Source: Rubripirellula amarantea (GTDB lineage Bacteria; Planctomycetota; Planctomycetia; Pirellulales; Pirellulaceae). From it: a stretch of 64,000 bases of DNA. The stretch spans positions 124,001 to 188,000 of the forward strand of contig NZ_SJPI01000001.1 of assembly GCF_007859865.1 (NCBI RefSeq), in the 5' to 3' direction. The notes under the pieces are model-generated. The model had not been told where the DNA came from. It saw nothing but the letters and a program-made list of their open reading frames with translations, and searched no databases. This document shows, one piece after another, positions 47,476-64,000 of the stretch (its first letter is position 1; each line of letters begins with the position of its first letter). The position numbers and the translations under genes were made by a program.

Positions 47476-49155
47476 TTAAACTTCGCGGGCGAAGCGTGGC
47501 ATCCAACGAATTTTCCAACCGGCTTCGGTGGCCTTGGTACCCGCATCATCAAGCGAATCAGCTTCAGGGCTGTTGAGTTCTGGTTGAGGCAGTTCGAAGA
47601 AATCGCTCTCGTCTTCGTCGGAAGAACTATCGAGCGTATCTTGCGATGAAACCGGTGGATCAATCTCAATCTTTTGCATCCGCGTGCTTGGCACATCGCC
47701 AAGTGTACGAGGGCTTTGCAGGACGGATTCGCCCATGGAATCAATCGGCTGGCTCACTTCGGGTGCCGAGTAGGATTCAACAACCGGAGTCGACGACATT
47801 GGCACCATGCTGGACGAGTAGGGTGCGGAGTTAGCAAACGACGAATAGCCGCTTACGATTGCTGGACTGAAGGGGTCGTAGTAAGACAACGGAACCTTCT
47901 GCGTCACTTGCTGAGGAACCATGATGGTTTCGGTGTAAGGCACATAGACCTGACGAGTAACCGGTTTGCGAACGGTTTGAACGATCGCTTCTTGCTCGTA
48001 ATACGATACCTGGACCGGTTCTTTGCGAGTTTGATAGGTCACTCGCGTGGATTGAACAGGCACTTTGCGTACTTTTTCTTCGGTGACCCAGCGCTGCTGT
48101 TGCACGGGAACCTTACGGGTCAGTGTTTTGGTCACGGGCTTGGTCACGACATAAGGAACCTTGCGAACTTCGGTCGTGGGAATCATGCGAGTGGTTTGCA
48201 CAGGGACATTCTGCGTGACCATCTCGGTCTGCATCCGCTGAACTGAAACTGGCACGCGCTGAGTCACCACTTCGGTTTGCATGCGAGTGGTTTGCACGGG
48301 CACTTGAACCTGCTGAGTTTGCGGAACGTAGGTGGTGCTGGCAACTTGCTGGGTGATGTAGTTGGGCCGGTACGCGTACTGCGTTTGAACCGTAGGTGGA
48401 GTGACCTGAGGTGTGACGGCATAGGCACCACGGACGCGAGCAAACAATCCAAGTGGTCCTGGTGTTGCGTACGCACCGGGAACGTACTGCAGGCCGTATT
48501 GAACTTGCCCCGGAACCACGGTCTGTTGAGCGACATAGCCTCCCGCGTCATAGACTTGGTTTTGCATGGTTGTGACGGGACGCATCGCCGTGTACTGCTG
48601 AGTTTGCAGTTGAGTTTCAACGACAGGTCGCTGGACCGCATAGCGCTGTTCATACATCTGTGTTTCCGTCACAGGTCTCTGTACAGCGTACTGTTGTTGG
48701 TAGTACTGCGTCTCAACGACAGGCTTGTAGGTTGTGTATTGCTCTTCGCGTTCGGCAGTTTCCGTAACGTAACTGGTTTGCTCAACCGTTTCGTCACGAT
48801 AAGAAGTCTCAACGACTGGCTTCCAAACGGTGAAGCGTTCTTCTCGGTAAGACGTCTCGGTAACGGGAACAGCTACCTGGTACTCACGTTCTTCAGTGCG
48901 AGTTTTCAAGACAGGGCGGTAGCTAGTAACTTGCTCGTCAACGTATTCGGTCTGTAAAGACAAACGCATACGCTGGACGGTTTGTGGTTGCATTACCGTT
49001 TCGCACTGCAAGCGATACGTCGGTTCAAAACAACACGCATCTTGGCCGAGCGCGGTAGGGCTCAACGAAACTGGTCCGATCGCGCAATTCATCGCCGCCG
49101 ACATTCCCACAGCGCAAAGGGTTGGCAACAGTTTGGACTTAGTGAAACGAATCAT
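47476..49155 (-). CDS. YTV-type cell-wall repeat protein
   Basis: 559 residues from ATG 49155, which gives a signal peptide (KLLPTLCAVGMSAAMNC); an upstream start would add 47 residues without one. The body is extremely rich in Tyr, Thr, Val, Gln and Arg, and shows two blocks of 16-residue repeats: PVxETxxxxxxYxxxR (81-192) and VPVQxxRMxTExVxxx (285-364). Between them lies a Gly/Pro/Tyr-rich stretch and after them an acidic Ser/Asp/Glu-rich C-terminus. This composition and repeat style is that of the YTV proteins described as cell-wall components of Rhodopirellula baltica. It should be exported and act structurally. Confidence 0.86.
   Translation of the reverse strand: MIRFTKSKLLPTLCAVGMSAAMNCAIGPVSLSPTALGQDACCFEPTYRLQCETVMQPQTVQRMRLSLQTEYVDEQVTSYRPVLKTRTEEREYQVAVPVTETSYREERFTVWKPVVETSYRDETVEQTSYVTETAEREEQYTTYKPVVETQYYQQQYAVQRPVTETQMYEQRYAVQRPVVETQLQTQQYTAMRPVTTMQNQVYDAGGYVAQQTVVPGQVQYGLQYVPGAYATPGPLGLFARVRGAYAVTPQVTPPTVQTQYAYRPNYITQQVASTTYVPQTQQVQVPVQTTRMQTEVVTQRVPVSVQRMQTEMVTQNVPVQTTRMIPTTEVRKVPYVVTKPVTKTLTRKVPVQQQRWVTEEKVRKVPVQSTRVTYQTRKEPVQVSYYEQEAIVQTVRKPVTRQVYVPYTETIMVPQQVTQKVPLSYYDPFSPAIVSGYSSFANSAPYSSSMVPMSSTPVVESYSAPEVSQPIDSMGESVLQSPRTLGDVPSTRMQKIEIDPPVSSQDTLDSSSDEDESDFFELPQPELNSPEADSLDDAGTKATEAGWKIRWMPRFAREV
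48064..48303 (-). repeat. YTV protein repeat block 2: five 48-bp units
   Basis: Encodes five consecutive 16-residue units beginning VP (VPVQTTRMQTEVVTQR, then VPVSVQRMQTEMVTQN, then three diverged ones), residues 285-364, with a 14-residue sixth copy after it. DNA identity is moderate and the period exact. Confidence 0.85.
48580..48915 (-). repeat. YTV protein repeat block 1: seven 48-bp units
   Basis: Encodes seven consecutive 16-residue units (for example PVVETQYYQQQYAVQR and PVTETQMYEQRYAVQR), residues 81-192, starting a partial eighth at residue 193. Pro-Val at the start of a unit and a basic residue at its end recur, without insertions. Confidence 0.85.
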
Positions 49156-49353
49156 TTTGCAAATACACCTTGAATGGCTCGACAGTCGCTCGATGGGGGC
49201 GTCCAAGTATCCGTGAATCTTGAACATCGAGCAACAAATAGGGGCGCGCAGATCCTGCCAAAGCAGACAGCTAGCGCCACAATCAAGAGTACGCAAGAGT
49301 TAAGCCGAATGTGAAGAAAAGCCCGCAAAAAGTCACAATTTGAGGCTCAGGTA

Positions 49354-49585: not shown

Positions 49586-50482
49586 CTAAAGCAACAGGAA
49601 TGAAAACCCGCTGATCACAGCCAATTCGGCAAGCGTCGCACATCCGTCGAATTCACCATCGCAGAAATGGTGGATTCCCCGGTCATGCGGATAGGATTCG
49701 CCACATCGACAATCACCCAACGAGGACACTTCGCATTGAGGCCGTTGACGAACCATTTGGTAAGGCAGCAATAACGCATCTCCAAGAAAGCGAACTGCAG
49801 AGACTGGATTTTGCAAACAGCCCCATCCCTTGCCGCAACGTTCGAGGTTCGGATCCTCGAAGTACAAGGGTCGATGACAAAAACGAATGGTTTGGCGAGA
49901 GTAAATAGGGAACGTCGATCCCGTCGACATCACCCATTCGGGTTCGCTGTGATTCATCAATGACGCCGCGACGCTAGCGGGTGTATCGACCGAAGAAGTG
50001 GAGTTGGAACCAAACTTTCGTTTGCCATCCGTTTCAGCATCCAGCGTTGTCGTGACAGCAATCTCGTGAAGTGGACGCTGCAACCGCCGAAGGGCGTCGA
50101 CAGACCCCGTGTGTCGATTTGGCTTATCCAAAGAGCGAGAGTCGCGCTGATTGTCTTCATCAATGTCTGATAACGAGGCTGATACTTCATCCTCTTCATC
50201 ATCTACGGATTCTAAAGCTCGATCACGATTGTTACGTCGCTTTGGCTCCGGCCGCTGTGGATCGTCTGCATTCGCTTCGGCCTCGAACTCATCTAGCATC
50301 AAATCACGAAGGGTCATGTCGTCCTCGACTAACTCCCCTAAGGTTGGTTGGTCGTCACGGGATGATTGAGAATCCTGACCATGGCTGGGTGCTGCTAATG
50401 CAAAAATGTTCGCTGCAATGATTGTCACCAAAACGACGTGGCGAACGACTGCCGAACAGGGGTAGCGACGGGTTAATGACAT
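49586..50482 (-). CDS. secreted protein of unknown function, acidic with Cys-rich C-terminal domain
   Basis: 298 residues from ATG 50482, which gives a signal peptide (VVLVTIIAANIFALAAPSHG); the frame is open 61 codons further without one. Residues 35-150 are highly charged (Asp, Glu, Arg) and probably disordered. The C-terminal 120 residues are compact: RFCHRPLYFEDPNLERCG, PVSAVRFLGDALLLPYQM and a run of cysteines in CEVSSLGDCRCGE. I do not recognise the family. It is divergent from the giant LEPR gene and downstream it faces the YTV gene, so a cell-wall role is possible. Confidence 0.72.
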   Translation of the reverse strand: MSLTRRYPCSAVVRHVVLVTIIAANIFALAAPSHGQDSQSSRDDQPTLGELVEDDMTLRDLMLDEFEAEANADDPQRPEPKRRNNRDRALESVDDEEDEVSASLSDIDEDNQRDSRSLDKPNRHTGSVDALRRLQRPLHEIAVTTTLDAETDGKRKFGSNSTSSVDTPASVAASLMNHSEPEWVMSTGSTFPIYSRQTIRFCHRPLYFEDPNLERCGKGWGCLQNPVSAVRFLGDALLLPYQMVRQRPQCEVSSLGDCRCGESYPHDRGIHHFCDGEFDGCATLAELAVISGFSFLLL

Positions 50483-50762: not shown

Positions 50763-53700
50763 GTGTCACCTGTGCACCTCCGACACCTTTTCCACCGAGT
50801 TTTGCTCGCATTCATGCCGAATTCCTCTCCCAAACCGTTGCTCCTTCGCGGGTCGCGTTATCGTGCCGGACAGAATCGTCTGAAGGAACTCATTACTGGC
50901 ACAAAGGCCATGTTTTGGCGACGCCATCGAGAACCTCGTCGAGTCCCGCCAAACGTGAAGTCGACTTGGGTCCCCATGGTGCGGGTGCTCGAACCACGCC
51001 TGGTGCTAAACGCGTCAGCGGAACTTAACCCTTTGGGGCAACTGCTGATCTCGGGAACCAATTCAGCAGACTTCGTTCAACTAGCCATCAACGTCAACGA
51101 CGAGCTAATTCTTCGTGACCAAGGTGGCGATCCCATCCCTATTGCAAACCATCCGGACGGAAGTGGATTTGAAACTAATCCGCTGGACCTAGACGACATC
51201 ACTAGCAAACTAATTTCGATTGACCTTGGCGATGGTGACGATGACGTTGTGATGCGTGTCGTGCCTGGGATTAACGTTCAAGTGGCGGAATCTGGCGGAA
51301 CCGACACGACCACTCTCCAGTCGATCCGTTCTCTATCGCCGGACGCTGGTCGACTTCGCGTTGATACTGAAAACATCGAACTGTCGGCTCCCGCATCGAC
51401 GTTCCGCTTCGGTAACACGGACACTCGTTTAACGGGCAACGTCTCGATCTCAGATCCCGCTACAACGTACGTCGTACAAGCGGATGCTCCGTTGGCTATC
51501 GAAGGAACCTTAACTCTAGACAACGATCTAACCATTCGCGGGAACGGCTCGCTCAACCTTTCAACGGCAACACTTTCGGCTTCTCAGTCCTCGATTGATT
51601 TTCAAATCACACTTCCGCAAGGTGAAGTTCGGTTGGGTGAAGTGAATGAGACAGCAGGAAGCACCATCGAAAATCTTACGATTGAATCTGCGTCAGCGGT
51701 GCGATTGCTAGGGAATGAAGTAATCGTCAACAACGAGTTCATTGTTCGCGACGTAGAGTCTTTGCTTCGGACCGAATCGTCGATCGATGCCGAGTTTGTT
51801 TCCCTCACATCAAATCAACAAATCACGCTACTTGGTGACATCGATTCGGCACTGTCGACAAGTCTGAAGTCTGAAGTTGTGATCGTTGGCGCGGACATCG
51901 CATCGACTGACGGCGATATCACAATTCACAGCGGCCAGCGTTTTGAACTCATTCGTTCAGCAACTCTTTCGACGGCCGATGCTGGATTGATTCGAATCGA
52001 TGGTGGCGGTGGGACGATTAGCACAATCGACGGTCACCTTGTCGATACTGGCACCGACAAGTCGTTTGTCTTAACCAATGCGTCTGAAGTATCGCTCGGT
52101 TCGCTTTCCGCATCTGACGGGACATTGAAACTCGGTGCACTGACAAGCCCTGTCGGAACAGTCGATCAGGCTGCTGGATCGCCGATCACGGTTAGCAGCA
52201 TCGAGGGTGTCATCAGCCAAGACTTGAACCTAAGAAACACCAATAATCAAATTGGTTCGATTCGTCAGTTATCCGTCGCTGGCAACGTCAATTTGAACGA
52301 CGCTATAGGAGATTTGTTCATTGATTCGTTGGTAGTTGGTGGCACCGAAGTTGAAATCGTAGCGGCGGGGGTGATTTCGCTTGGCCGAGTGGATGCACGT
52401 CAAGCGACTGTGCGTTTCCAGTCCGACAGGCTCATCGACGCAGCGACAGATCAAGCCACGGATATCTTCGCAACACGTCTGGACATTGATACCCAAACAG
52501 GCATGAACCGGTCTCTAGGAATTGAACTGGAAGGCGTTTCCGAACTTGCGATGCGGGTTGCTCAAGGCAATGTGTTCATTGAGTCGCTGGGTGACCAATT
52601 GCTCGATCTCACCAACGTCGCGCTTCAGAACGGTTCCTTTGAACTAATCGCAGAGGGCAACGTTGATGTATCACAGGTCGACCTTGTATCCGGAGACGCC
52701 AACATTCGCGCGACAGGAGAGTTGAGTATCAGTCGCCTTAACGCAAGTGCCGGTGAAGTCTGGCTAGACGGGCTAACGATTAACGATGCAGAGAGCGACG
52801 AGTTAACGGATATAACCGCGACAAGAATTACACTGGCTGCAATCAATGGGATCGGAGACCAACGAATTGTTGAGATTGATCAAGCGACCGAGCTAATTTC
52901 TGCGACGGACAATGGGGACATTCGTGTCGATTCGCTGACCCCTTCGTTGCTCGATGTGACTCAGACAAACGCGGGATCTGGTTTGATTCAAATTAACGCA
53001 GCCGGCGATCTGTTTGCTCGACAAATTGATTCTGCCGCCGGTAGGGTGACGCTCAAATCACTGGGTTCTCTTTCCATCGGTACTATCGAAGCGACCGACG
53101 GCTTGGTGAACCTTTGCGGCAACACGATTGATGATGCGGCGACCGATGACATCGCTGACGTGGTGGCGGGACAAATTGAGTTCGATGCTTCCGAAGGTAT
53201 TGGGAGCGTTCGATCCATAGAAATCGAACAAGCAAGTTCGCTTTCTGCAGTTACGGCGACCGGAAACATCGACCTGATTTCGTTGGGTACGAATCCCCTT
53301 GTGGTCACCAACGGAAAGTCCGGTGATGGCTCGATACGGCTACAAATTGCTGGCGACGTTCGCACGGACCATTTAGCTGCGACCAACGGAGACGTTTCCC
53401 TGGTTTCAGACGGCTCTGCCGGCGTCGGTTCGATCGAAGCTCTGGCGGGAACCATCGAAGTTACCAGCCTTTCAATCAACGATGCGCAGAACGACACTGA
53501 CGCGGACTTAACCGCGGCCAATGTCGTCCTGAATTCTGAAGAAGGTATCGGAAATCAACAGGCGATCGAGATTGACGACGCAAGCATTTTGGTTGCAAGT
53601 ACGGTGACTGGGAATGTGGCGATCAATTCACTAGGATTTGGTCCAATCGATGTGACTCTATCCAACGCGAGTGACGGCACCGTCGAGATCACTGCCATTG

Positions 53701-56700
53701 GCGACGTGTACGCACGCGATATTCAATCAGCGGGGGGCGAAGTCTCGCTCACCGCACTTGGTGGTATCTCGATCGAAGAAATTCAATCGCTTGATGGTGA
53801 GATCATCTTAGATGGGCTAGCAGTGAATGATGCAATGGACGACGAAATTGCGGATTTGGTTGCCCAGCGAATCACCATCAATGCTGTGCAAGGCATCGGA
53901 AATGATCAAACCATCGAAGTCGATCAAGCGAAATCCCTCACCACGACTACGCAAGAGGGAAACATTCAATTGCAATCCCTTGGTGTCGACGGCCTCGTTC
54001 TTGAGAAGGGAACGACTGGCGACGGTTCAGTGTCGCTTTTGACACGTAGCGATCTTCGCGTCGATGAACTGACCGCGAATAACGGCGATGTGCGATTGAC
54101 TGCCGGCGGATTGATTACTGTCGGCTCGATCGAAGCGTCTTCGGGAACCATTGAACTTACGGCGACATCCATCAACGATGCGCAAGCCGACCTTGATGCT
54201 GACTTGACCGCGACAAATATAATCTTGACTGCTGATCAGGGAATTGGCGAACAACGTGCGATTGAGATTGATGGCGCCAGCGTCCTCACGGCAACCACGA
54301 CAAGTGGTGAAATTGAGATCAATTCGTTGGGTTCTTCGTTACTAGATGTAACTCAGACCATCGCAAACGAAGGACCAATTCGGATCGTTGCTGTTGGTGA
54401 TGTTCGAGCCTCTCAAGTTTCATCGACCTTGGGAAACATTTCGATTCAATCGCAAGAGAACATATTCGTCGGTTCGATTGATAGCCAAGAAGGAATCGTT
54501 CGCTTAGATGGAAAAAGCATCGATGATGCAACCAATGACCAGGTCGCTGATATCTTCGCTAGCCGAGTTGATTTGACGGCTGAGGAAGGCATCGGTAGCG
54601 AACAAACGATCGAGATCGACCAAGTTCGTTTTCTAACCGCAGCGACGCTTTCCGGAAACATCCAGCTCGTATCTTTAGGCAGCGATAGTCTCGTGATCGA
54701 GGACGCGATATCGGGCAATGGTTCGGTCGAGATCGTGGCCAGCAGCGACGTTCGCATTGATCAAATCATTGCACGCGGCGGCGATGTTAGCTTGACCACG
54801 ACCGGAACCGTTGACATTGGATCAATCGAAGCTTCCACCGGGACCATCGAGCTATTGGGTGCGTCGATCAATGATAACTTCGACGATTTGGAAGCAGATC
54901 TTGTTGCCGTCAATGTAGTGTTGACTGCCGGCACGGGCATCGGCAACGTGAGAGCTGTGGAACTAGATCAGGTCAGCTTCCTGACTGCGAAAAACACATC
55001 AGGCGACGTGAATCTTCGCTCGCTAGGCCAAGGCATTCTGACTATGGAAGAAGTCAGCACATCGATTGGCTCAATTGATATCGTTGCGACAGGCACGGTG
55101 GTAGCTGAGATCGTCAGGTTGGGAAGCCCCGACGCTACCGGTATGAACACGAACAATCCGTGTTCCATTTCGACTACCGATGTCGATGAAAACGAAATTC
55201 AGATCACGTTGACCGGATTGAACAGTGACTTGCTTGTCGGCAACATTTCCGCGTTTGGTGAAGCCGATGTAACTTTGACAGTGGGTGATGACATCCGTCA
55301 CATAGACGCGGCCAGCGTGGATCAGCGAGTGATTGCGGATGACCTAAAACTGCTATCTTTCAATCGTAGCGATGACACCGATTCTGGGATTGAATTGCGA
55401 ACCACCGTCAATCAATTGGTCGCATCGATCTCAGGGGCGAACCCCGGTGATCTAACCATTGTGGAATCAGACTCGATTTGCTTGGCAAGTTCTGATGAAC
55501 ACCTAGATTCCATTGTTGAAACCGGCAATGGTTTGATCAGTGTTACCGCAGCCAATGCCATTCGTGTCATTGACCATGCCAATACGGATCAAGACTCGAA
55601 CTTGAAGGGTGACCCCGAATTGGTCGCCAATGGAGCAGCGAACGGTTCCGTATTCCTAATCGCTCCATCTGTCATCCTCGACGACAACGTGCAGATCCAT
55701 GGATTCAAGGATGTCATGTCGCTAACGTCCGCAATGACGCGCAACTCTTTAGATGAACCTACCCTTGATTCGACTGAGCGAGCAATTTCGATCCGAACGA
55801 ATGAACTCACCGTCGGCGACAACGTAGAACTATACACAGGCGAACAACAGGGTACGGCTCGCCAGTTCACCCAGCGTCCTATCGATGCCAGTGCTGCTTC
55901 ATTCGCATTCTTCGATCCTAATTCGGTCAAAGTCAATGTGCTGACCCAGGCTTTGCAGAACGACGCGACGGGAGTTCTTACGTTCGACATTGGGACTCAG
56001 GGCGAACGGGGAATAACGGTCGTTGTGGATTGGGGCGATTCCAACCCACGACGCTTCCAACAAATCGACGGTTTGTCCGCTGACACCGGGTACTTCGTTG
56101 ACATTGCTAAGAATGCTTCGGGCACTCCACTGGATCCGGTTGTCACCTCGGCCAACGCCAACCAACTCCAATTGACCCATTTGTACTTGCAGCAAGATGT
56201 CCTTAATAGCCAAGAGAATGGACGCAATGCAGCGACAAGCCCTTTCAATGTGCGTTTTGCCGTACGGTATCACGAGTCCATTATGGTTCAGAGTTTGGCT
56301 GAGGGTGAGGCGGCAACGGTCAACCAGAACGGTGTCAACAACACAGCCGTTGGCGGTGTGCTTTCGAGCACTGACAATCCCCTTACTCAACTGCAACTTA
56401 GCATCGGTACAAGTCCAGCACTTGAATCGGGAACCGCGTCCTTCATCATCCCCGCCCTGACGATTCCTTTGGCATTCGTTCCCGTGCGCGATGTGATCCC
56501 TGAACTTGAGACGACTGAGGTCGTGATTGTGGCCGAGACTTCCGTCGAGGTAACGTCTTCTAGCGTTGAGACTGTGGAAAGCCCTACCGCAAGCACGGTC
56601 ACTCCGGAAGAGTTCCTTCAGTTGCGAGTGCTGTCGCCAGATCCCGATGGCGAAGATCTTGCTCGCCCCCAGAAACTCCCAAAAGACATTCTTGATGGCG

Positions 56701-57068
56701 ACAAACTAACTGATTTGTTCTCGCGGTTGCCCGACGGTGCCTACGAAATCGAGTACGTCATTAGCGAAGGTGACGAGCGTTCGATCTTGCGCGTTAATGT
56801 TCGTGATGGCGAGGCAACCATCCCGGACAGCGAACTCGACGAAGGGTTATTGAGACTTCGCGAATTGAAGGACGACGATCGTCAGGAAGACCAATCTAGC
56901 GAGGATAACACAACCGACCAGACGAAGTCAGCAGTATCGGAAGACAGTCAGCCGATCAACGTTTCGGTCGAATTTGGTGCAATAGAAATGAACCAGAGCA
57001 CGTCCAACAGCGTGTCGTCTTCACGATTGACCGCGGCCAGTCGATTTGCGAGGCGCCAATATGCCTAA
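50763..57068 (+). CDS. giant LEPR-type surface protein with 116-residue repeats
   Basis: 2101 residues from GTG 50763; ATG 50814 would remove 17. It opens with a basic region and then VRVLEPRLVLNASAEL (LEPR at about 76), the N-terminal motif of large exported planctomycete proteins. From about residue 580 to 1507 eight units of exactly 116 residues follow, each with a GIGxxRxIEID-like anchor, a later SLG, and VGSIxAxxGxI-like strands, a beta-helix type composition like filamentous haemagglutinin. The later part has a PKD-like VVDWGDSN segment, and the C-terminus is acidic. Its stop overlaps the start of a kinase gene by 8 bp. Secreted or surface-bound location is inferred. Confidence 0.82.
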   Translation: MSPVHLRHLFHRVLLAFMPNSSPKPLLLRGSRYRAGQNRLKELITGTKAMFWRRHREPRRVPPNVKSTWVPMVRVLEPRLVLNASAELNPLGQLLISGTNSADFVQLAINVNDELILRDQGGDPIPIANHPDGSGFETNPLDLDDITSKLISIDLGDGDDDVVMRVVPGINVQVAESGGTDTTTLQSIRSLSPDAGRLRVDTENIELSAPASTFRFGNTDTRLTGNVSISDPATTYVVQADAPLAIEGTLTLDNDLTIRGNGSLNLSTATLSASQSSIDFQITLPQGEVRLGEVNETAGSTIENLTIESASAVRLLGNEVIVNNEFIVRDVESLLRTESSIDAEFVSLTSNQQITLLGDIDSALSTSLKSEVVIVGADIASTDGDITIHSGQRFELIRSATLSTADAGLIRIDGGGGTISTIDGHLVDTGTDKSFVLTNASEVSLGSLSASDGTLKLGALTSPVGTVDQAAGSPITVSSIEGVISQDLNLRNTNNQIGSIRQLSVAGNVNLNDAIGDLFIDSLVVGGTEVEIVAAGVISLGRVDARQATVRFQSDRLIDAATDQATDIFATRLDIDTQTGMNRSLGIELEGVSELAMRVAQGNVFIESLGDQLLDLTNVALQNGSFELIAEGNVDVSQVDLVSGDANIRATGELSISRLNASAGEVWLDGLTINDAESDELTDITATRITLAAINGIGDQRIVEIDQATELISATDNGDIRVDSLTPSLLDVTQTNAGSGLIQINAAGDLFARQIDSAAGRVTLKSLGSLSIGTIEATDGLVNLCGNTIDDAATDDIADVVAGQIEFDASEGIGSVRSIEIEQASSLSAVTATGNIDLISLGTNPLVVTNGKSGDGSIRLQIAGDVRTDHLAATNGDVSLVSDGSAGVGSIEALAGTIEVTSLSINDAQNDTDADLTAANVVLNSEEGIGNQQAIEIDDASILVASTVTGNVAINSLGFGPIDVTLSNASDGTVEITAIGDVYARDIQSAGGEVSLTALGGISIEEIQSLDGEIILDGLAVNDAMDDEIADLVAQRITINAVQGIGNDQTIEVDQAKSLTTTTQEGNIQLQSLGVDGLVLEKGTTGDGSVSLLTRSDLRVDELTANNGDVRLTAGGLITVGSIEASSGTIELTATSINDAQADLDADLTATNIILTADQGIGEQRAIEIDGASVLTATTTSGEIEINSLGSSLLDVTQTIANEGPIRIVAVGDVRASQVSSTLGNISIQSQENIFVGSIDSQEGIVRLDGKSIDDATNDQVADIFASRVDLTAEEGIGSEQTIEIDQVRFLTAATLSGNIQLVSLGSDSLVIEDAISGNGSVEIVASSDVRIDQIIARGGDVSLTTTGTVDIGSIEASTGTIELLGASINDNFDDLEADLVAVNVVLTAGTGIGNVRAVELDQVSFLTAKNTSGDVNLRSLGQGILTMEEVSTSIGSIDIVATGTVVAEIVRLGSPDATGMNTNNPCSISTTDVDENEIQITLTGLNSDLLVGNISAFGEADVTLTVGDDIRHIDAASVDQRVIADDLKLLSFNRSDDTDSGIELRTTVNQLVASISGANPGDLTIVESDSICLASSDEHLDSIVETGNGLISVTAANAIRVIDHANTDQDSNLKGDPELVANGAANGSVFLIAPSVILDDNVQIHGFKDVMSLTSAMTRNSLDEPTLDSTERAISIRTNELTVGDNVELYTGEQQGTARQFTQRPIDASAASFAFFDPNSVKVNVLTQALQNDATGVLTFDIGTQGERGITVVVDWGDSNPRRFQQIDGLSADTGYFVDIAKNASGTPLDPVVTSANANQLQLTHLYLQQDVLNSQENGRNAATSPFNVRFAVRYHESIMVQSLAEGEAATVNQNGVNNTAVGGVLSSTDNPLTQLQLSIGTSPALESGTASFIIPALTIPLAFVPVRDVIPELETTEVVIVAETSVEVTSSSVETVESPTASTVTPEEFLQLRVLSPDPDGEDLARPQKLPKDILDGDKLTDLFSRLPDGAYEIEYVISEGDERSILRVNVRDGEATIPDSELDEGLLRLRELKDDDRQEDQSSEDNTTDQTKSAVSEDSQPINVSVEFGAIEMNQSTSNSVSSSRLTAASRFARRQYA
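52500..55283 (+). repeat. eight protein-coding repeats of exactly 348 bp
   Basis: The codon for the first Gly of the GIG anchor occurs at 52500 (as GMN), 52848, 53196, 53544, 53892, 54240, 54588 and 54936, spaced by exactly 348 bp each time. The sequences between copies differ at many positions, so the spacing is preserved by selection on the protein rather than by recent duplication. A last, degraded copy appears to end near 55283. Confidence 0.92.
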
Positions 57069-60000
57069 TAACAATGGCGATGATATGCCAAACGACGGCG
57101 AAGACGTCAACGATGGCGACGACTTGGACAAGACGCTGCCAGCGATCGAGAAAACTACCCCGGACATCGGGAATTCCAAAACCGGTGAACTGGACGCTAC
57201 CGTCGTGTTCCCAATGCCGCCGAATTCGGAATTGGATCAAACCGTAGACGTTCCACCGTCGATCCTAACGAGCGAGAACATTGGTGCAACGATCAACCCT
57301 CGTGAACTGGGCCCCAGCGAAGCGAAAGCTTGGCAATCGATTGTGGGATCATCAGAGCCGAGTACGACTGCAACAACGCAACTGACGTTCAGTGAAAATC
57401 GTGAGGACATCAATAAAACGAAGATCTCCGAGACGCGAGTTGTACGTGGTAAAGGTCTCGCATCGAGCAAACCCGATGACCCGCCAACCTCAGGAATGGA
57501 AACGGCGGACATCGGTGACATGTCGCGGGGATCGGACAGCGGCATGCACATCGCGCAAACGAGCCAAGCTTTCGATTCGAGCTTGATGAAACAAACACCG
57601 GCGATTGAACGCACCGTTTCGGACAAGGCGTTTGGTCGGCTTCGCACCTGTGATGTCGTCGATTCCCGCACAAGCCCGCAGGTCAATTGCGATTACCAAC
57701 TGGTCAAGAAGCTAGGCCAAGGCGGAATGGGTGACGTTTACGTTGCTCGTCAAAAGTCTTTGGATCGCTTACTCGCGCTAAAGCTCATCAAGCCGATTGT
57801 TGGCGACCGTAAGAAACGACTTGAACAAACGGGGCGATTAGAAGAAGTCGAATCGGAACGGCGACAGCAGTTTTTGTCCGAAGCCGAAGTGACCGGTGAC
57901 CTTGATCACCCTAACATCGTCCCCATTCATGATATTGCGGTGACGACTAACGGTGAGCTCTTCTATTCGATGAAGAAGGTCGACGGGATCCCCTGGTCCG
58001 AGAAGATCCAGTCCTTCGACCTCGCCCACAACATCGAAGTGCTGCTAAAGGTTTGTGATGCGATCGCGCTTGCTCACCATCGAGGCGTTGTGCATCGCGA
58101 TATCAAGCCAGAGAACATCATGCTGGGCGACTACGGCGTTGTCATGGTCATGGACTGGGGACTCGCGCTTCCAACGTCGTCCTACCCTAAAGAACGCCAA
58201 GAATCCATTTTGGCAACTTCCGGTCTTGGTGGCACGCCTGCCTTCATGGCGCCGGAAATGGCCATTGGACCGCTCACGAAAATCGGTCCCGCTGCAGACA
58301 TATATCTGCTCGGAGCGACCTTGTTCATGGTCATCACAGGAAAACCGCCTCACCACGCAGCCAACGTAACAGAGTGCCTGCATGCGGTTCGATCCAATGC
58401 GATACGTGAAGTAGCACCGGACAAGCGCGGGGAGCTATTGGATATTGCGTTGAAGGCAATGGCGACTGATCCATCGGATCGGTACGCCGGCGTGCTTGAA
58501 TTCCAACAAGCCATACGCGACTATCTCGAGCACGCTGACAGTATCCGACGAAGTCGCGAAGCACGGCTTCTGCTTCTCGCTGCGAGCGAAAATGGCTCCT
58601 ACGAAACGTTCTCGCGTGCAACGTTCAAATTTCAAGAAGCCATCGAATCTTGGCCGGGCAATCAGGATGCGATTGAGGGTCTAGCAGACGCCAAATTGAT
58701 GCACGCCGAGGCGGCACATTCGAAGGGCGACTTCGATCTCGGATTCTCACTGGTCGATGCCGAGAATGAAAGTCATGGCCCGATCATCAAGAAGCTTCAA
58801 GAAGGTGTTTGGCAACGTGAGTCTCGCGTAACAAGACTGAAGTTAATGCGACGCGTGGCGGCTGCGATGTTAATTTTCATATTGGTCGGCGGCACGTTTT
58901 CGTGGTTAAAGATTCGATCCGAAAAACAAAACGCAATCGCCGCCCGCGATCAAGAGAAGGTAGCCAAAGACGCTGCATTGGAAGCTCGAGATCGTGAGGA
59001 AAGTGCGAAACGTGACGCAATCAAAGCTCGAGATCGCGAAGTGGAAGCGACGAAGGAAGCGGTGCTTGCGAAACAAAATGCCGAGCAGGCCGAACAATCT
59101 GCCAGGATGTCAGCCGAACAAGAAAGATTGGCCAAGGAAGATGCCGTGGCTCAAAAACGGCGGGCTGAGATTTTGGCCGAAAGTGAGAAAGAAGCACGTC
59201 GAACTGCGGATGAAGAAAAGCAACGGGCAATCGCAGCCAAAGCACTCGCGGAAAAATCCGAACAGCGTGCTAGTTACGAAGAATACATATCTAAGATTGC
59301 CTTGGCCAAAGCCAGCTTGGAACGAAACGACACCGCCAACGCGAGAAAGATCCTCGACAGCCTAAGGGATTCGCAACACGCGAACGGTTGGGAATGGCGT
59401 TGGCTTTGGAAACAAACGAGCGGGGCAGAGTCCGAGTTTGACACGCATTCGGGTGTCAAGAAGTCCTCGATCTCGAAGGATGGCCGCGCGGTCGCGATCC
59501 TTGATGACAATGGACGAGTGTTTGTCATTGAACCTTCGAAGTCGATCGATGGTCAACAGCGCAAGCGTTTCATTCCTATTCCCGCTGACTTAATTGGCAA
59601 AGCGACTTGTGTTGCGATCGCTAAGCGTTCGAATATGGTTGCCGTTGGCTTTGATGACGGAACTGTGCTTATTAGCGACGGCCAAGAGCAGCAAACATTT
59701 TCGTCGCATTCGGATCGAGTGAACGATCTGCAATGGCTTGGAAACGATGTGCTTGTCAGTAGTTCATCAGACCGCACCGTACGGATCTTCGACAATCGTC
59801 GTGGGATCGAATTAACAGAGGAGAAGGCTCTTTGGCATCTCTCGTCAGTTGACTCACTGGCGGTCACTGGCGACTCGGAACAAGCGATGATTGCAGCGGT
59901 CATGTCGTCTGAATCTGCGGGGCGAGTAGCCGTCTGGCAGGTCACTCTTACAACGCCGCTAAAGTTTGAACAACAAGGCGTGTTTGCCGGACATGACCAT

Positions 60001-62625
60001 CCAATCGCCGCCATCACAATCCGTGATGATGGCACCCTGGCTGCGTCGGGTGATATCGATGGAGAACTTCTTCTCTGGGACCCTCGAAAACTCACTAACA
60101 CCAAGTACGAAGACGCAGTTCAGCGAGCTGTCTCGGCCATGACCGATGAAAAGCCCCGAGCGAAGCAGCGCCGAACCGAGAGCGAACGAGGAACGCGACT
60201 ATCGGACCCTCAAATCGAGAGAAGCAGCTCTTTTGTTTCGACAATCGCTCCCTCGGCAGCCGACCCATCCGATTCAAAACTCGCTCACCGCGACACGATT
60301 CAAACGTTGGACTTTGATGACTCTGGTACGAAACTGCTTTCGGGATCGGATGACTTCACGATGAAAAGCTGGGACGTCGCTGCTGGGAAACTTCTCACCA
60401 AGTATCGAGGTCACGGCGGTTGGGTCATGAGCGCGGCATTCCGAGAAGATGATCCCGAACGGATCATGTCGGTGTCAGCGGATGGCAACGTCTTGGACTG
60501 GAACGCGAAAACCTACGTCAGCGATTCAGTAGCTCAAACGTTGGTGCAAGAAACGGATGGCGACGCGGCCGATCAATCTCGAACGAAGCCTGCCCATGCG
60601 TTTCCTATTTCGTCCGCATCTTTTTCGCCCGATGGTCGCCGAATCGTCACTGCTAGTGTCGACCATTCCGCGAAGATACTGTCGATCGATCCAACAACAT
60701 TGGCATTCTTCGACGAAATCGAATTGAAAGACCAAACGTTGAGTGAAGGAACTTCGTTCGTTGCGATGTCAATGCAAACCAACCGTGCCGCCAGTGCCTT
60801 GTTCATCGGCAGCGCCGACGCAACCGTGCGCATCTGGGACGTGGCCAAAGGTGTCCAGAAGTCAGAGATTCGTGGAACGGGACTCAATGGAACCATTGCG
60901 GTCTCGCGATCGGGAAATCTGCTACTGACGGGATCGAGTTCGCCAGACTTCAAAACGATTCTTTGGCAAGTGGACCCGACCGGGGCGGTTAAACCGAGAC
61001 GCCTCGCTCGAATGGTCGGACATGATCAAGCCGTCACCGCGATGGACATATCGCCCGATGAGTCAAGATTGTTCACCATCGACTCCATCGGCTTCGGAAT
61101 TTTGTGGGACGCAAGAACGGGGAAAGCGATCGGCAAACCCTACGAAAACATTCGTGGCTTCCGAGCTTCGACGGCAACGTTTTCACCTTCTGGGAAGCAG
61201 ATTTGGATCGGCGGCGATGATGGCCAGCTTACTGAAATCGACTTGCAAACCAAACAAACCCTTCGGCGACTGGATCACGACGGAGGATTGCGTGATGTTC
61301 ACTTTGACGCCGAGCATTCTTACGCCGTCACCGTCAGTGAACTTTCTACGCTTACCGCCCGGACGTCCGTTGCAACGCTTTGGAATCTTCGCACAGGCAA
61401 TTCAGTGGAGCTAGATCGGGCTGTGGACGCGATCGAAGGTGATCAGGGCCAATCGAAGCGTATCATGGCCGCTCGTATGGCTCCGGATGCCAGCACAGTT
61501 GTTGTGTCTCGACGTGAAACGTCCGGGCAATCGTCTTTGAGCGTCTGGCAAGACATTGCATCGATCACGTCGACAACCAGGCCTCAGCGTGTTCTTGGAC
61601 TACCGAAACAACTCCAAACGACTCAGGCTATGGTTTTGCCAAATCAAGGTCAGTGCATCACGATGAACAAATCGGGTGCGTTTCGCTGGGAACTAGACAC
61701 TGGCAAACTTGTTCGCAGCTATCGAGAGCACGCTGCTTTGACACACGCTTGTTTTTCGCCCGACGGAAAGTACGTGGCGACCGGCAGTCGTTCGGTCAAG
61801 ATTTGGGATGCTACCAACGGGAAAGCAGTTGCCAAAATCGAGAGTCCTCACTTGGGTCCCGTTCGAACGCTTTCGTTTCTGGCACAACCCACGCGTGAGA
61901 ACACGATTGCTTACGACCTAGTGACCGGTGGCGACGATGGAGTGGCACGGCAGTGGAAAGTGACTCCGACGATGGGCACCACACAACCTGTTCGTCAGTG
62001 GTTGGCAAACAATAACGGAGCCGTGCGAGCCGTAGCTACATCCCCGTCGGGGCAACGGTTACTCATCGCTGGCGACAACGGGCTGGCTCAAGTCATCGAC
62101 ACTGACGACTCGAGTATTCAATGGCGCATTGATCTGAATCAAACTGACGGGACCGAAGAGAGTCCTGCCGACTTCATGTGTGGCGCGTTTAGCGATGACG
62201 AGCAATTTGTCGTGCTAGGCGGCTCCGACAATCTCGTTCGCATGTATGCCATCAATGATCACAACCAGAACGGTGACGATTCACTCCGACAACTCACTTC
62301 CGTCCCCATTGAGTTTTCTGGCCATGCAGGCAACATCGATGATGTAAAAATTTTGGGAACCATTGATTCCGGCTTGCGAGTTTTCAGCGCATCGAGTGAC
62401 GATTCTGCAAGAATCTGGGATTCGATGATCCGATTGGTCAACGGTAAGGCGGAAGTCACATCGAACGAAGGTAGGGAAGTCCTTTCACTCCAAAAGCACC
62501 GTGGCGACGTGACCGCGATTGATGTCACCGACGACGGCAGGCTCATGATGACGGCAGGCCGCGATGGGCAAGTGATCCTATGGCCGGCGACGGCCCCCGA
62601 GAACTTGTTTGAAGCAGTTCCCTAA
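57061..62625 (+). CDS. transmembrane Ser/Thr protein kinase with WD40 C-terminal region
   Basis: 1854 residues from ATG 57061, overlapping the stop of the LEPR gene by 8 bp. Residues 1-210 are acidic, Thr/Ser-rich and probably disordered. The kinase domain (about 212-490) has LGQGGMGDVYVA, LALKLIKP with the ATP-binding Lys, VVHRDIKPENIML, DWG in place of DFG, and FMAPEMA. A membrane segment follows at about 600-619, then a coiled coil rich in Ala, Glu and Lys (about 620-750), then from about 790 to the end WD40 blades (SFSPDGRRIVTAS, VRIWDVA, CFSPDGKYVATGS). The WD40 part should lie outside the cytoplasm, opposite to the kinase. Ends overlap the next gene, on the other strand, by 4 bp. Confidence 0.92.
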   Translation: MPNNNGDDMPNDGEDVNDGDDLDKTLPAIEKTTPDIGNSKTGELDATVVFPMPPNSELDQTVDVPPSILTSENIGATINPRELGPSEAKAWQSIVGSSEPSTTATTQLTFSENREDINKTKISETRVVRGKGLASSKPDDPPTSGMETADIGDMSRGSDSGMHIAQTSQAFDSSLMKQTPAIERTVSDKAFGRLRTCDVVDSRTSPQVNCDYQLVKKLGQGGMGDVYVARQKSLDRLLALKLIKPIVGDRKKRLEQTGRLEEVESERRQQFLSEAEVTGDLDHPNIVPIHDIAVTTNGELFYSMKKVDGIPWSEKIQSFDLAHNIEVLLKVCDAIALAHHRGVVHRDIKPENIMLGDYGVVMVMDWGLALPTSSYPKERQESILATSGLGGTPAFMAPEMAIGPLTKIGPAADIYLLGATLFMVITGKPPHHAANVTECLHAVRSNAIREVAPDKRGELLDIALKAMATDPSDRYAGVLEFQQAIRDYLEHADSIRRSREARLLLLAASENGSYETFSRATFKFQEAIESWPGNQDAIEGLADAKLMHAEAAHSKGDFDLGFSLVDAENESHGPIIKKLQEGVWQRESRVTRLKLMRRVAAAMLIFILVGGTFSWLKIRSEKQNAIAARDQEKVAKDAALEARDREESAKRDAIKARDREVEATKEAVLAKQNAEQAEQSARMSAEQERLAKEDAVAQKRRAEILAESEKEARRTADEEKQRAIAAKALAEKSEQRASYEEYISKIALAKASLERNDTANARKILDSLRDSQHANGWEWRWLWKQTSGAESEFDTHSGVKKSSISKDGRAVAILDDNGRVFVIEPSKSIDGQQRKRFIPIPADLIGKATCVAIAKRSNMVAVGFDDGTVLISDGQEQQTFSSHSDRVNDLQWLGNDVLVSSSSDRTVRIFDNRRGIELTEEKALWHLSSVDSLAVTGDSEQAMIAAVMSSESAGRVAVWQVTLTTPLKFEQQGVFAGHDHPIAAITIRDDGTLAASGDIDGELLLWDPRKLTNTKYEDAVQRAVSAMTDEKPRAKQRRTESERGTRLSDPQIERSSSFVSTIAPSAADPSDSKLAHRDTIQTLDFDDSGTKLLSGSDDFTMKSWDVAAGKLLTKYRGHGGWVMSAAFREDDPERIMSVSADGNVLDWNAKTYVSDSVAQTLVQETDGDAADQSRTKPAHAFPISSASFSPDGRRIVTASVDHSAKILSIDPTTLAFFDEIELKDQTLSEGTSFVAMSMQTNRAASALFIGSADATVRIWDVAKGVQKSEIRGTGLNGTIAVSRSGNLLLTGSSSPDFKTILWQVDPTGAVKPRRLARMVGHDQAVTAMDISPDESRLFTIDSIGFGILWDARTGKAIGKPYENIRGFRASTATFSPSGKQIWIGGDDGQLTEIDLQTKQTLRRLDHDGGLRDVHFDAEHSYAVTVSELSTLTARTSVATLWNLRTGNSVELDRAVDAIEGDQGQSKRIMAARMAPDASTVVVSRRETSGQSSLSVWQDIASITSTTRPQRVLGLPKQLQTTQAMVLPNQGQCITMNKSGAFRWELDTGKLVRSYREHAALTHACFSPDGKYVATGSRSVKIWDATNGKAVAKIESPHLGPVRTLSFLAQPTRENTIAYDLVTGGDDGVARQWKVTPTMGTTQPVRQWLANNNGAVRAVATSPSGQRLLIAGDNGLAQVIDTDDSSIQWRIDLNQTDGTEESPADFMCGAFSDDEQFVVLGGSDNLVRMYAINDHNQNGDDSLRQLTSVPIEFSGHAGNIDDVKILGTIDSGLRVFSASSDDSARIWDSMIRLVNGKAEVTSNEGREVLSLQKHRGDVTAIDVTDDGRLMMTAGRDGQVILWPATAPENLFEAVP

Positions 62626-64000
62626 CGTCCGCCGAAGGACTCGCGAAGGGCTGCTTTCATCCGATCCCAAACGGATGCACGGTCCACCTCGATTGCTACC
62701 TTGGACTTACGATGCACCGGAAGAACTCTATCTCCGTTTGCAATGCGGATCCTCACGCGATATTGCGGGTCTAATGTCAGTCCATTCGAATGACGCTCTA
62801 CCGGCGATGGGCTAATGGCGACGACAATTCCAGTCACTGCTCGCTTGCCATGATCTTTCAGTATCAATGAAGCTGCTTGTCCGTCACGCAGCAAGGCAAC
62901 TTGGCTTTGATCAACCAGTGCAACCGCTTCTCGAGCGTGCGCGTGCCCAACGGATCCCAACACCGTTCCGACCGGAAGCCACATTCCCGATTTGAACGAC
63001 TTCTTCATTTGAACCTTTGTCGAATCCGAGGAATACGAGACAGTTGAAATGGATGGTGACGGACTAGGTGGTGGGTAAAACACACCCGTCACCGGCGACC
63101 GCACGTCAAGCGATGACGCCTGACGCGTCAACAAATCAACACGGTCGGTACTGCTGCGAAGCGACTCTGCGATAGCGGGAATCTGTTCGCTCCATTGCGA
63201 ATTCACATGCCGTGTTTGCTGGAAGACTCGCAATCGAGTTTGCCAGACAGACTGCTGAGAAACCGCTTCCGCATGTTTGCGTTGAGTCTCGCCATTATAG
63301 AGTTGGACAAGCGATTGCCCATCAGCGACGGTCGCACCGTGGCGTAGATCTTCAGTCAAGTAACCTGCTGTCGAAACGAACACGTCCTGTGATCCCGCTG
63401 CAACAATGTCAGCTGGCGCGACTACGAAGCGGGGTAGCGGTATTAGACAACCGGCAACAATGCATGCAGCACCCAGCAACCAGGAAATCCGAGCCAAACC
63501 CGAGGGACTCGCGACACTATTTCGCGATCTGTTCTGCCTTAGGAGCCTGACCAACTTGGACGCCAGCCCCAAAGCGATTGCTCCCACCACGGCAGCGCCG
63601 AGTCCAATCGAGTTCGCAGCCGAATAGAGCAATCCCACAATCACCGCGAGGATAACGACTCGGTACGCCATGCTAAGTGCAGCGTAGATTGACATTAGTA
63701 TTGCCCTCCCCATTGCCACACCTGCCACACCCTCGCCTCCCCAATGATTTCGACGATCGAACCAACCACGAAGGATACGACGAGACTCGCTGGCAAGATT
63801 GGGCGTGCCGGTAGCGTCGGAAAGCAGGTAGTACCCGTCATAACGCAGCAAAGGATTACCGTTGATTAACAGCGTCGAAACCGAGCAAACCAGCATCAAT
63901 ACGATGCTGACGTGATGGATCACTCCGCTATCAGTTGCCAACCAGAAGAATGTGGCAAGTGTTGCGATCCAGCATTCCGCCAGGATCCCAGCCGCTGAGA
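62622..64000 (-). CDS. M50-like membrane protease/HlyD-type adaptor protein (5' end outside window)
   Basis: 458 residues visible, open to the window edge, so the true start lies beyond 64000. The first part has SAAGILAECWIATLATFFW and VSTLLINGNPLLRYDGYYLLSD, the second half of an S2P/M50 metalloprotease fold with its conserved Asn-Pro and Asp. Membrane segments follow. From about residue 180 it continues with AGSQDVFVSTAGYLTEDLRHGATVADGQSLVQLYN, a biotinyl-lipoyl/HlyD-like periplasmic adaptor with a coiled coil, and SLILKDHGKRAVTGIVVAISP near the end. The HExxH zinc site would lie outside the window. Similar fusions in planctomycetes sit in efflux or secretion loci. Confidence 0.8.
   Translation of the reverse strand, partial: SAAGILAECWIATLATFFWLATDSGVIHHVSIVLMLVCSVSTLLINGNPLLRYDGYYLLSDATGTPNLASESRRILRGWFDRRNHWGGEGVAGVAMGRAILMSIYAALSMAYRVVILAVIVGLLYSAANSIGLGAAVVGAIALGLASKLVRLLRQNRSRNSVASPSGLARISWLLGAACIVAGCLIPLPRFVVAPADIVAAGSQDVFVSTAGYLTEDLRHGATVADGQSLVQLYNGETQRKHAEAVSQQSVWQTRLRVFQQTRHVNSQWSEQIPAIAESLRSSTDRVDLLTRQASSLDVRSPVTGVFYPPPSPSPSISTVSYSSDSTKVQMKKSFKSGMWLPVGTVLGSVGHAHAREAVALVDQSQVALLRDGQAASLILKDHGKRAVTGIVVAISPSPVERHSNGLTLDPQYRVRIRIANGDRVLPVHRKSKVAIEVDRASVWDRMKAALRESFGGR

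What the first reader, a model, noticed from the sequence alone, without database searches (positions are those of the whole stretch)
50763..62625. Possible surface-sensing module: LEPR repeat protein overlapping a membrane kinase-WD40 gene
The LEPR gene stop and the kinase start overlap by 8 bp (ATGCCTAATAA), so the two are probably co-translated. The kinase has a cytoplasmic kinase domain, one membrane span, a coiled coil and a very long WD40 region on the other side. WD40 blades could bind the repeat protein and report its state or attachment to the kinase. I know of no described system of this composition.
Basis: inference. Interest (0 to 1): 0.65.

Follow-up and report, generated by a model that had tools for sequence, protein, structure and literature searches.

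The report
Giant surface protein plus receptor kinase
A very long repetitive protein that these bacteria probably export to their surface is encoded together with a membrane kinase whose large outer part should face it; the two genes stay neighbours across much of a bacterial class and often lie near a poorly understood export machine, so the kinase may watch over that protein or its export.

Summary
A 2101-aa protein with 116-aa repeats and an N-terminal LEPR motif (50763-57068) overlaps by 8 bp a kinase/TM/coiled-coil/WD40 gene (57061-62625). The pair is no accident: searching by kinase, the gene directly upstream is a long, often giant ORF in 19 of 20 loci from relatives and 16 of 16 further loci of the class; searching by the giant's C-terminal domain, 43 of 46 decidable genes are followed by the kinase. 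The membrane span is more positive on the kinase side in 63 of 65, so WD40 should be periplasmic. The LEPR motif resembles a published planctomycete export signal. A copy lies within 20 kb of the pair in 11 of 31 loci on long contigs; in this genome 5 of the 6 other copies have a LEPR giant beside them or within about 8 kb. Best reading: the LEPR protein is cargo of such a module and the kinase a dedicated receptor for the cargo or its export; attachment sensing is one untested version. Each part is of a known kind; the combination was not found in print.

The parts
49586..50482 (-). divergent upstream gene of unknown function ('upPrior'); signal-peptide-like start at about 50482 (by eye; ORF runs to 50665); conserved C-terminal part
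   Evidence: homologue divergent at -2/-3 in 14 of 40 loci, own included; also L188, L189, L192, L199, L096, L208-L210 and L212-L215; no Pfam hit
50763..57068 (+). giant LEPR repeat protein (P0001), probable exported cargo
   Evidence: sequence matches in 21 of 99 genomes, own included; positional equivalents beyond that
50988..51026 (+). LEPRLVLNASAEL motif, like the planctomycete N-terminal export signal, after a basic stretch
   Evidence: LE.R.[VLIM][LFM] in 25 of 27 complete partner N-termini; consensus RRLxxExLExRxLLA in PMC8567305
52428..55211 (+). about eight 116-aa repeats (limits approximate, partly by eye)
   Evidence: autocorrelation peaks at lags 232, 116, 348
56604..56831 (+). conserved C-terminal LPDGxYxIxY domain (about 75 aa)
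   Evidence: profile A2, E 6e-28
57015..57065 (+). basic C-terminal tail SSSRLTAASRFARRQYA
   Evidence: charge of last 30 residues +3 or more in 49 of 57 partners
57061..57068 (+). 8-bp overlap of LEPR stop and kinase start
   Evidence: over 57 loci the gap to the longest kinase ORF has median 45 bp, 35 at most 60 bp, 9 overlapping, 5 over 200 bp
57061..62625 (+). membrane Ser/Thr kinase with WD40 ectodomain (P0002)
57127..57618 (+). acidic N-terminal stretch with four [DE]xT[VILM] motifs
57694..58485 (+). protein kinase domain with HRDIKPEN and DWG
   Evidence: Pfam PF00069 E 1.3e-31; alignment
58858..58914 (+). membrane span AAAMLIFILVGGTFSWLKI
58933..59325 (+). charged alanine-rich coiled-coil-like linker (limits approximate)
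   Evidence: alignment A1
59386..62622 (+). WD40 region, several beta-propellers
62622..63998 (-). 3' part of an M50 peptidase-HlyD fusion gene (whole gene L207:6623-8710), first of a convergent cluster that goes on outside the window with HlyD, a HlyD protein of the GAF-HlyD group and a TolC-like protein

Best explanation
The pair is the cargo-plus-receptor half of a multi-gene export locus. The LEPR protein is a giant repeat protein sent out of the cell by its basic N-terminus and LEPR signal, most likely through the ABC-less TolC / HlyD / GAF-HlyD / M50-HlyD module encoded next to it here (with a secondary SecA as motor where one exists). The co-expressed kinase sits in the inner membrane with its propellers in the periplasm, where they meet the giant protein, perhaps at its conserved C-terminal LPDG domain, during or after export. 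Occupancy changes the activity of the cytoplasmic kinase, which phosphorylates its own threonine-rich N-tail and other proteins and so tunes export or the response to a blocked, finished or attached surface protein. Shown here: conserved pair, motif, topology by rule, catalytic motifs, recurring export cluster, threonine motifs. Inferred: cargo relation, propeller-cargo contact, direction of signalling, role of the threonine motifs.
For: Long ORF at -1 in 19 of 20 kinase-selected loci and 16 of 16 further loci of the class; kinase after the giant in 19 of 19 LEPR-selected loci whose contig goes on and after 43 of 46 decidable C-domain genes (the profile was built from paired giants and leans to them). 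Motif in 25 of 27 complete partner N-termini. Positive side on the kinase side in 63 of 65. M50-HlyD within 20 kb in 11 of 31 loci on contigs of 30 kb or more (and fetch tables; binomial 1.9e-10 at 2.6% background estimated from copy number). Order TolC | GAF-HlyD, HlyD, M50-HlyD | upPrior | LEPR giant in L208, L209, L213, L214, nearly so in L210 and L211. In this genome the pair's cluster and 3 of 6 other M50-HlyD clusters have a LEPR-motif giant beside them, 2 more one within about 4 and 8 kb. SecA_DEAD beside upPrior in L034/L230, L037/L231, L189.
Against: No binding, export or phosphorylation data. No M50-HlyD seen within 20 kb in 20 of 31 loci (listing was cut, so an upper bound). No SecA beside the own locus. 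One own-genome M50-HlyD cluster has only a motif-less giant near it (L203/L228). Own protein lacks the hydrophobic stretch that 37 of 57 partners have near the C-terminus. WD40 kinases without a giant at -1 exist: L058 (alkaline phosphatase at -1), L076, L085, L087. In G037 giant and kinase are on different contigs. 'Paired' is not one clade on the kinase tree (8 label changes, shuffled mean 16.5). The threonine motifs are absent in 13 of 66 paired kinases and present in unpaired L076 and L087, so they do not mark the pair.
Confidence: 0.5

Rival explanations
1. Inside-out control: the kinase regulates making or export of the giant protein by phosphorylating cytoplasmic targets (export parts, or the basic Ser-bearing tail of the cargo before export); the WD40 part is a scaffold that holds cargo or export complex and does not sense.
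For: Basic C-terminal tails with Ser beside Arg/Lys in many partners; export genes nearby in several loci; N-tail threonine motifs 268 observed against 54 expected in 78 longer kinases (paired, unpaired and deep together), 3 against 2.0 in 7 short kinases.
Against: Does not explain why an ectodomain of about 1,000 residues is kept; no phosphosite data.
Confidence: 0.25
2. Surface sensing: the giant protein binds a surface and passes its attachment through the propellers to the kinase.
For: Same anatomy as the best explanation; proteins with this signal are likely surface exposed according to PMC8567305 (passages).
Against: Nothing here singles out attachment; the part of the giant that matches best across relatives is the C-terminal region, while the middle varies.
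Confidence: 0.15
3. Shared transcription only: the kinase senses something else and the gene order reflects co-regulation of envelope genes.
For: No physical evidence of contact; some WD40 kinases have no giant partner.
Against: Adjacency is kept over families and orders while length and repeats of the giant change; two-way association.
Confidence: 0.1

Closest known systems
Secondary SecA_DEAD / HlyD / M50 / GAF-HlyD module (Kamneva, Poudel and Ward 2015, PMC4452313; abstract and sections 16 and 17 read)
   Same: M50-HlyD fusion, HlyD adaptor, GAF-HlyD group protein and a TolC/OEP protein in one cluster, without ABC transporter in it; SecA_DEAD in two other clusters of the same genome
   Different: No SecA beside the own locus; a LEPR giant and a kinase-WD40 gene are linked. 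The paper's text holds no LEPR, kinase, WD40 or giant and calls the role completely unknown
Planctomycete N-terminal export signal RRLxxExLExRxLLA (PF07595; as told in PMC8567305, passages) and NCBIfam NF012209 LEPR-XLL
   Same: LExRx(V/L)L core near the N-terminus of very long proteins, mostly without a hydrophobic signal stretch
   Different: Own protein misses the NF012209 cut-off (6.8 against 17 bits) and has no PF07595 hit
Planctomycetota Ser/Thr kinases with one TM and C-terminal WD40 or TPR arrays (PMC11032199, passages)
   Same: Kinase inside, TM, WD40 outside
   Different: A subset tied to a giant partner gene; 'giant', 'operon', 'adhesi' and 'surface' do not occur in that text
PknD-type kinase with an extracytoplasmic beta-propeller, Mycobacterium (recalled, no call)
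   Same: Kinase, one TM, propeller outside
   Different: One NHL propeller against several WD40 propellers; no giant cargo gene

Membership tests
SecA/M50-HlyD type-I-like export module (PMC4452313) | M50-HlyD, HlyD and GAF-HlyD proteins in one cluster | tested here: met
   own cluster: HlyD_3 in all three, Peptidase_M50 at 26.1 bits (just under its cut-off 27.2); GAF is found by Pfam in the L208 homologue but not in the own protein. HETAH and NPLLRYDG stand in the M50 part (sequence)
SecA/M50-HlyD type-I-like export module (PMC4452313) | secondary SecA_DEAD in the locus | tested here: not met
   none among the ORFs of the own cluster; present beside L034, L037, L189 and in two other own-genome clusters. 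The own locus is therefore filed as a SecA-less variant, not a full member; the paper itself notes that the parts may be encoded apart
SecA/M50-HlyD type-I-like export module (PMC4452313) | transport activity and cargo | not testable with these tools
   needs genetics
Classical type I secretion | ABC transporter with HlyD and TolC in the locus | tested here: not met
   no ABC gene between or next to the cluster genes; an ABC ATPase at L031 14606-16180 lies about 7.7 kb beyond TolC among other genes
LEPR-XLL / PF07595 export-signal proteins | curated family score | tested here: not met
   NF012209 6.8 bits, cut-off 17; no PF07595 hit
LEPR-XLL / PF07595 export-signal proteins | LExRx(L/V)L core near the N-terminus of a long protein | tested here: met
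   own LEPRLVLNA; 25 of 27 partner giants with complete N-terminus
Planctomycetota kinase-TM-WD40 proteins | kinase domain, one TM, WD40 array on the other side | tested here: met
   Sidedness rests on the charge rule. The 19-residue scan gives one peak in 50 of 67, two or more in 16 (own among them), none in 1
Planctomycetota kinase-TM-WD40 proteins | catalytic motifs intact | tested here: met
   own HRDIKPEN and DWG; HRDxKPEN in 64 of 67, D[WF]G in 67 of 67

The most novel reading that the evidence does not exclude
A widespread bacterial system in which an ABC-less export machine, its giant surface cargo and a cargo-specific receptor Ser/Thr kinase belong together: the kinase reads the cargo (export progress, completion or mechanical state) in the periplasm through multi-propeller WD40 modules and answers by phosphorylation from the inside. 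This would give the orphan SecA/M50-HlyD module a cargo class and the phylum's receptor kinases a first natural ligand.
Probability: 0.35. Interest if true: 0.8.

Novelty: new variant of a known kind. Interest (0 to 1): 0.63.

Why it matters
Three things described apart meet in one locus: the planctomycete LExRxLL export signal (no exporter named in what I read), the M50-HlyD/GAF-HlyD module (role stated as completely unknown in PMC4452313), and kinase-WD40 receptors (no ligand named in what I read). If right, each explains the other, and all three become testable with deletions in one cultivable planctomycete.

Tried and rejected
Chance adjacency: rejected by two-way conservation. A property of all kinases: rejected; the seven short kinases L080, L086, L088-L092 have no LEPR giant upstream (the offsets printed there are not turned for - strand genes, I read them by strand); the long upstream genes of L088 and L089 are UvrA. 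L077, first set down as unpaired, has a 1250-aa SdrD_B/PKD protein with LESRSLL at -1 and counts as paired; L058, first set down as paired, has an alkaline phosphatase at -1. The tree was made with both old labels. Sec-type signal peptide on the giant: no strongly hydrophobic stretch up to the motif in 23 of 25 (15-residue mean under 1.3; L194 1.89 and L199 1.67 are higher). C-terminal membrane anchor as a rule: dropped, 20 of 57 partners, own included, lack a clear hydrophobic stretch. Structure of the LEPR C-terminus: unusable, pLDDT 32.6 from three sequences, not searched. Solved relatives: none for P0001, only weak ones for the C-domain (best 7bpp, E 0.016). PqqD-like N-terminus of the M50-HlyD protein: seen by eye; Pfam only E 0.074 in L208, below cut-off, so not claimed. 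The search for related loci gave two loci that I used, K23_9 (L096) and a Schlesneria MAG (L097); the other 78, mostly at 28-38% identity over the kinase domain, were not examined. Four deep-phylum kinases (L195-L198) show no WD40 match and are left out of the counts: long -1 genes without the motif in L195 and L196, LEER-motif proteins at -2 in L198 and at +1 opposite in L197.

A first hand count of export clusters near the pair (11 of 30) was replaced by a stated rule (contig 30 kb or more), which adds G028, G013 and G030 and drops the two G029 loci: 11 of 31. G029:C765, on a 29.8-kb contig, does have a copy.

Full report
What is there. On the + strand lie a 2101-aa ORF (50763-57068) and a kinase gene that starts at ATG 57061 and ends at 62625, an overlap of 8 bp. 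The first protein has a basic N-terminus, the motif LEPRLVLNASAEL, about eight repeats of 116 aa, a C-terminal domain of about 75 aa with the core LPDGxYxIxY, an acidic stretch and a basic tail. It has no Pfam match and no relative of solved structure by sequence. The second has an acidic N-tail, a kinase domain with intact motifs, a membrane span, a charged alanine-rich linker and a WD40 region that models as propellers.

Conservation, from the LEPR side. P0001 matches in 21 of 99 genomes, own included. I fetched the loci of the other 20. The next gene is the kinase-WD40 orthologue in all 19 whose contig goes on; the contig of L015 ends.

Conservation, from the kinase side. P0002 matches at E<=1e-80 in 51 of 99 genomes, own included. 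I fetched 20 kinase loci from 19 genomes without a P0001 match. The gene directly 5' on the same strand is a long ORF in 19 of 20: 788 to 3370 aa, many cut by the end of the stretch; in L058 it is an alkaline phosphatase. The kinase profile A1 matches 40 of 244 genomes of the phylum at E<=1e-120, own included. I fetched one locus from each of 20 of these: 16 of the same class (three of them of the same family) all have a -1 ORF of 1090 to 3582 aa; four deeper ones are told apart below. The named loci L096 (K23_9) and L097 (Schlesneria MAG) have the long ORF too, cut in L097.

The reverse test. A profile of the C-terminal domain, built from partner giants, gives 49 matches in 40 of 99 genomes, that is 48 genes. 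Forty-three are followed by the kinase; three are not (G037:C214, G045:C261, G030:C166); two lie at contig ends (G020:C187, G090:C111). In G037 the pair is thus split. The profile leans to paired giants by its making.

Control. Twenty more kinases were fetched: 16 that are not the best of their genome and 4 that are (L092-L095). Seven short ones (L080, L086, L088-L092) have no LEPR giant upstream; two of them follow UvrA. Of the WD40-bearing ones, L077, L079, L081, L082, L083, L093, L094 and L095 have a long or cut upstream partner; L076, L085 and L087 do not; L084 ends at its contig; L078 has the C-domain upstream at its contig end. On a tree of 84 kinase domains 'paired' needs 8 label changes against 16.5 in shuffles and is not one clade (bootstrap not settled; two labels, L058 and L077, were wrong at that time).

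Junction. Measured from the longest kinase ORF in 57 loci, the gap has a median of 45 bp; 35 are at most 60 bp, 9 overlap, 5 exceed 200 bp. One transcript is likely; co-translation is likely here and less clear where gaps are long.

Signal and ends of the giant. Of 58 -1 genes of the class, L058 among them, 27 have a complete N-terminus and 25 of these have LE.R.[VLIM][LFM] within the first 150 aa; L062 is a split ORF and L182 has masked bases. PMC8567305 (passages) gives RRLxxExLExRxLLA as a thought export signal and says that 8 of the 10 longest T. immobilis proteins bear it. The own protein fails the curated scores, so it is a divergent form. Near the C-terminus 37 of 57 partners have a hydrophobic stretch (17-residue mean 1.0 or more in the last 75 aa) and 49 of 57 a tail of charge +3 or more; own has the tail, not the stretch.

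Topology. Of 67 longer kinases taken as paired (L058 among them), 65 have their most hydrophobic stretch 50-350 aa after the kinase domain; the kinase-side flank is the more positive in 63 (means +3.9 and 0.0). PMC11032199 (passages) predicts the same sidedness for such kinases.

The N-tail. [DE]xT[VILM] occurs 268 times in the N-tails of 78 longer kinases (paired, unpaired and deep together) against 54 expected from shuffles, and 3 times against 2.0 in seven short ones. Own has 4. Thirteen of 66 paired kinases have none, and unpaired L076 and L087 have 4 each, so the motif does not mark the pair. Reading it as phosphorylation or docking sites is inference.

The export cluster. Convergent to the kinase lie M50-HlyD, HlyD and a HlyD protein of the GAF-HlyD group, then a TolC-like gene. 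The same set stands beside the pair in L033, L036 and L040 and, without TolC in the stretch, in L186; L188 shows M50-HlyD and HlyD. It stands on the other side, with upPrior between, in L208, L209, L213 and L214, nearly so in L210 (TolC turned) and L211 (upPrior not matched); L212 and L192 show the M50-HlyD gene. M50-HlyD matches occur in 96 of 99 genomes, 0-8 each. For paired kinases that I fetched in these 99 genomes on contigs of 30 kb or more, a copy lies within 20 kb in 11 of 31: yes G000, G003, G021, G028, G032, G039, G057, G072, G073, G078, G088; no G001, G012, G013, G027, G030, G031, G034, G038, G040, G041, G044, G046, G047, G058, G065, G066, G074, G075, G079, G091 (and the fetch tables; counted by hand). 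With 4.2 copies per genome the background is about 2.6%, binomial 1.9e-10. The listing was cut, so 'no' is an upper bound. In the own genome there are 7 M50-HlyD genes. Beside the own pair, and beside the clusters of L204/L232 (3840 aa; with SecA_DEAD), L205 and L206 (with SecA_DEAD), stands a LEPR-motif giant; L202/L227 and L200/L201 have one about 4 and 8 kb away; L203/L228 has a 2450-aa gene without the motif.

What is known. PMC4452313 (abstract, sections 16 and 17) describes the M50-HlyD, HlyD and GAF-HlyD cluster with a secondary SecA_DEAD, proposes SecA as the motor in place of an ABC transporter and calls the role completely unknown. Its text has no LEPR, kinase, WD40 or giant. My ten answered paper searches listed no paper on the pair or on a link between the LEPR signal and this module; most listed papers I saw only as listings, and subscription papers and preprints are not held.

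How it probably works. The reading that uses most of the evidence is that the LEPR giant is cargo of such a module and the kinase its dedicated receptor or export monitor. Shown: conserved pair, motif, cluster, topology by rule, catalytic motifs. Inferred: cargo, contact, signal, output. Attachment sensing remains possible but nothing here singles it out.

Verdict. Observation confirmed; interpretation partly supported; each part is of a known kind, the combination is a new variant, and it joins three orphan observations into one testable system.

Noticed in passing
window 47476-49296 (-): A YTV-domain protein (PF07639) lies beyond the divergent gene; related genes stand at -3, opposite, in L033 and L036 (cluster 11). 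Cysteine-rich YTV proteins scored highest in a cell-wall preparation of T. immobilis (PMC8567305, passage).
   Followed up: partly
L034/L230, L037/L231, L189: A SecA_DEAD-like gene follows the divergent gene next to the LEPR-kinase pair.
   Followed up: partly
L221 (G037:C214) and L058 (G037:C256): Split pair: a LEER giant with the C-domain and the WD40 kinase lie on different contigs, neither beside the other.
   Followed up: partly
L195-L198: Deep-phylum kinases of about 1000 aa without WD40 match stand near long genes or LEER-motif proteins, so the association may be older than the WD40 part.
   Followed up: no
L081, L082, L083: A second kinase-giant pair in genomes that also have the first; a protein that looks FHA-like by eye lies convergent to the kinase.
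   Followed up: no
L035, L043, L046: A gene that looks like an ABC ATPase and one that looks like its permease (by eye) lie convergent downstream of the kinase.
   Followed up: no
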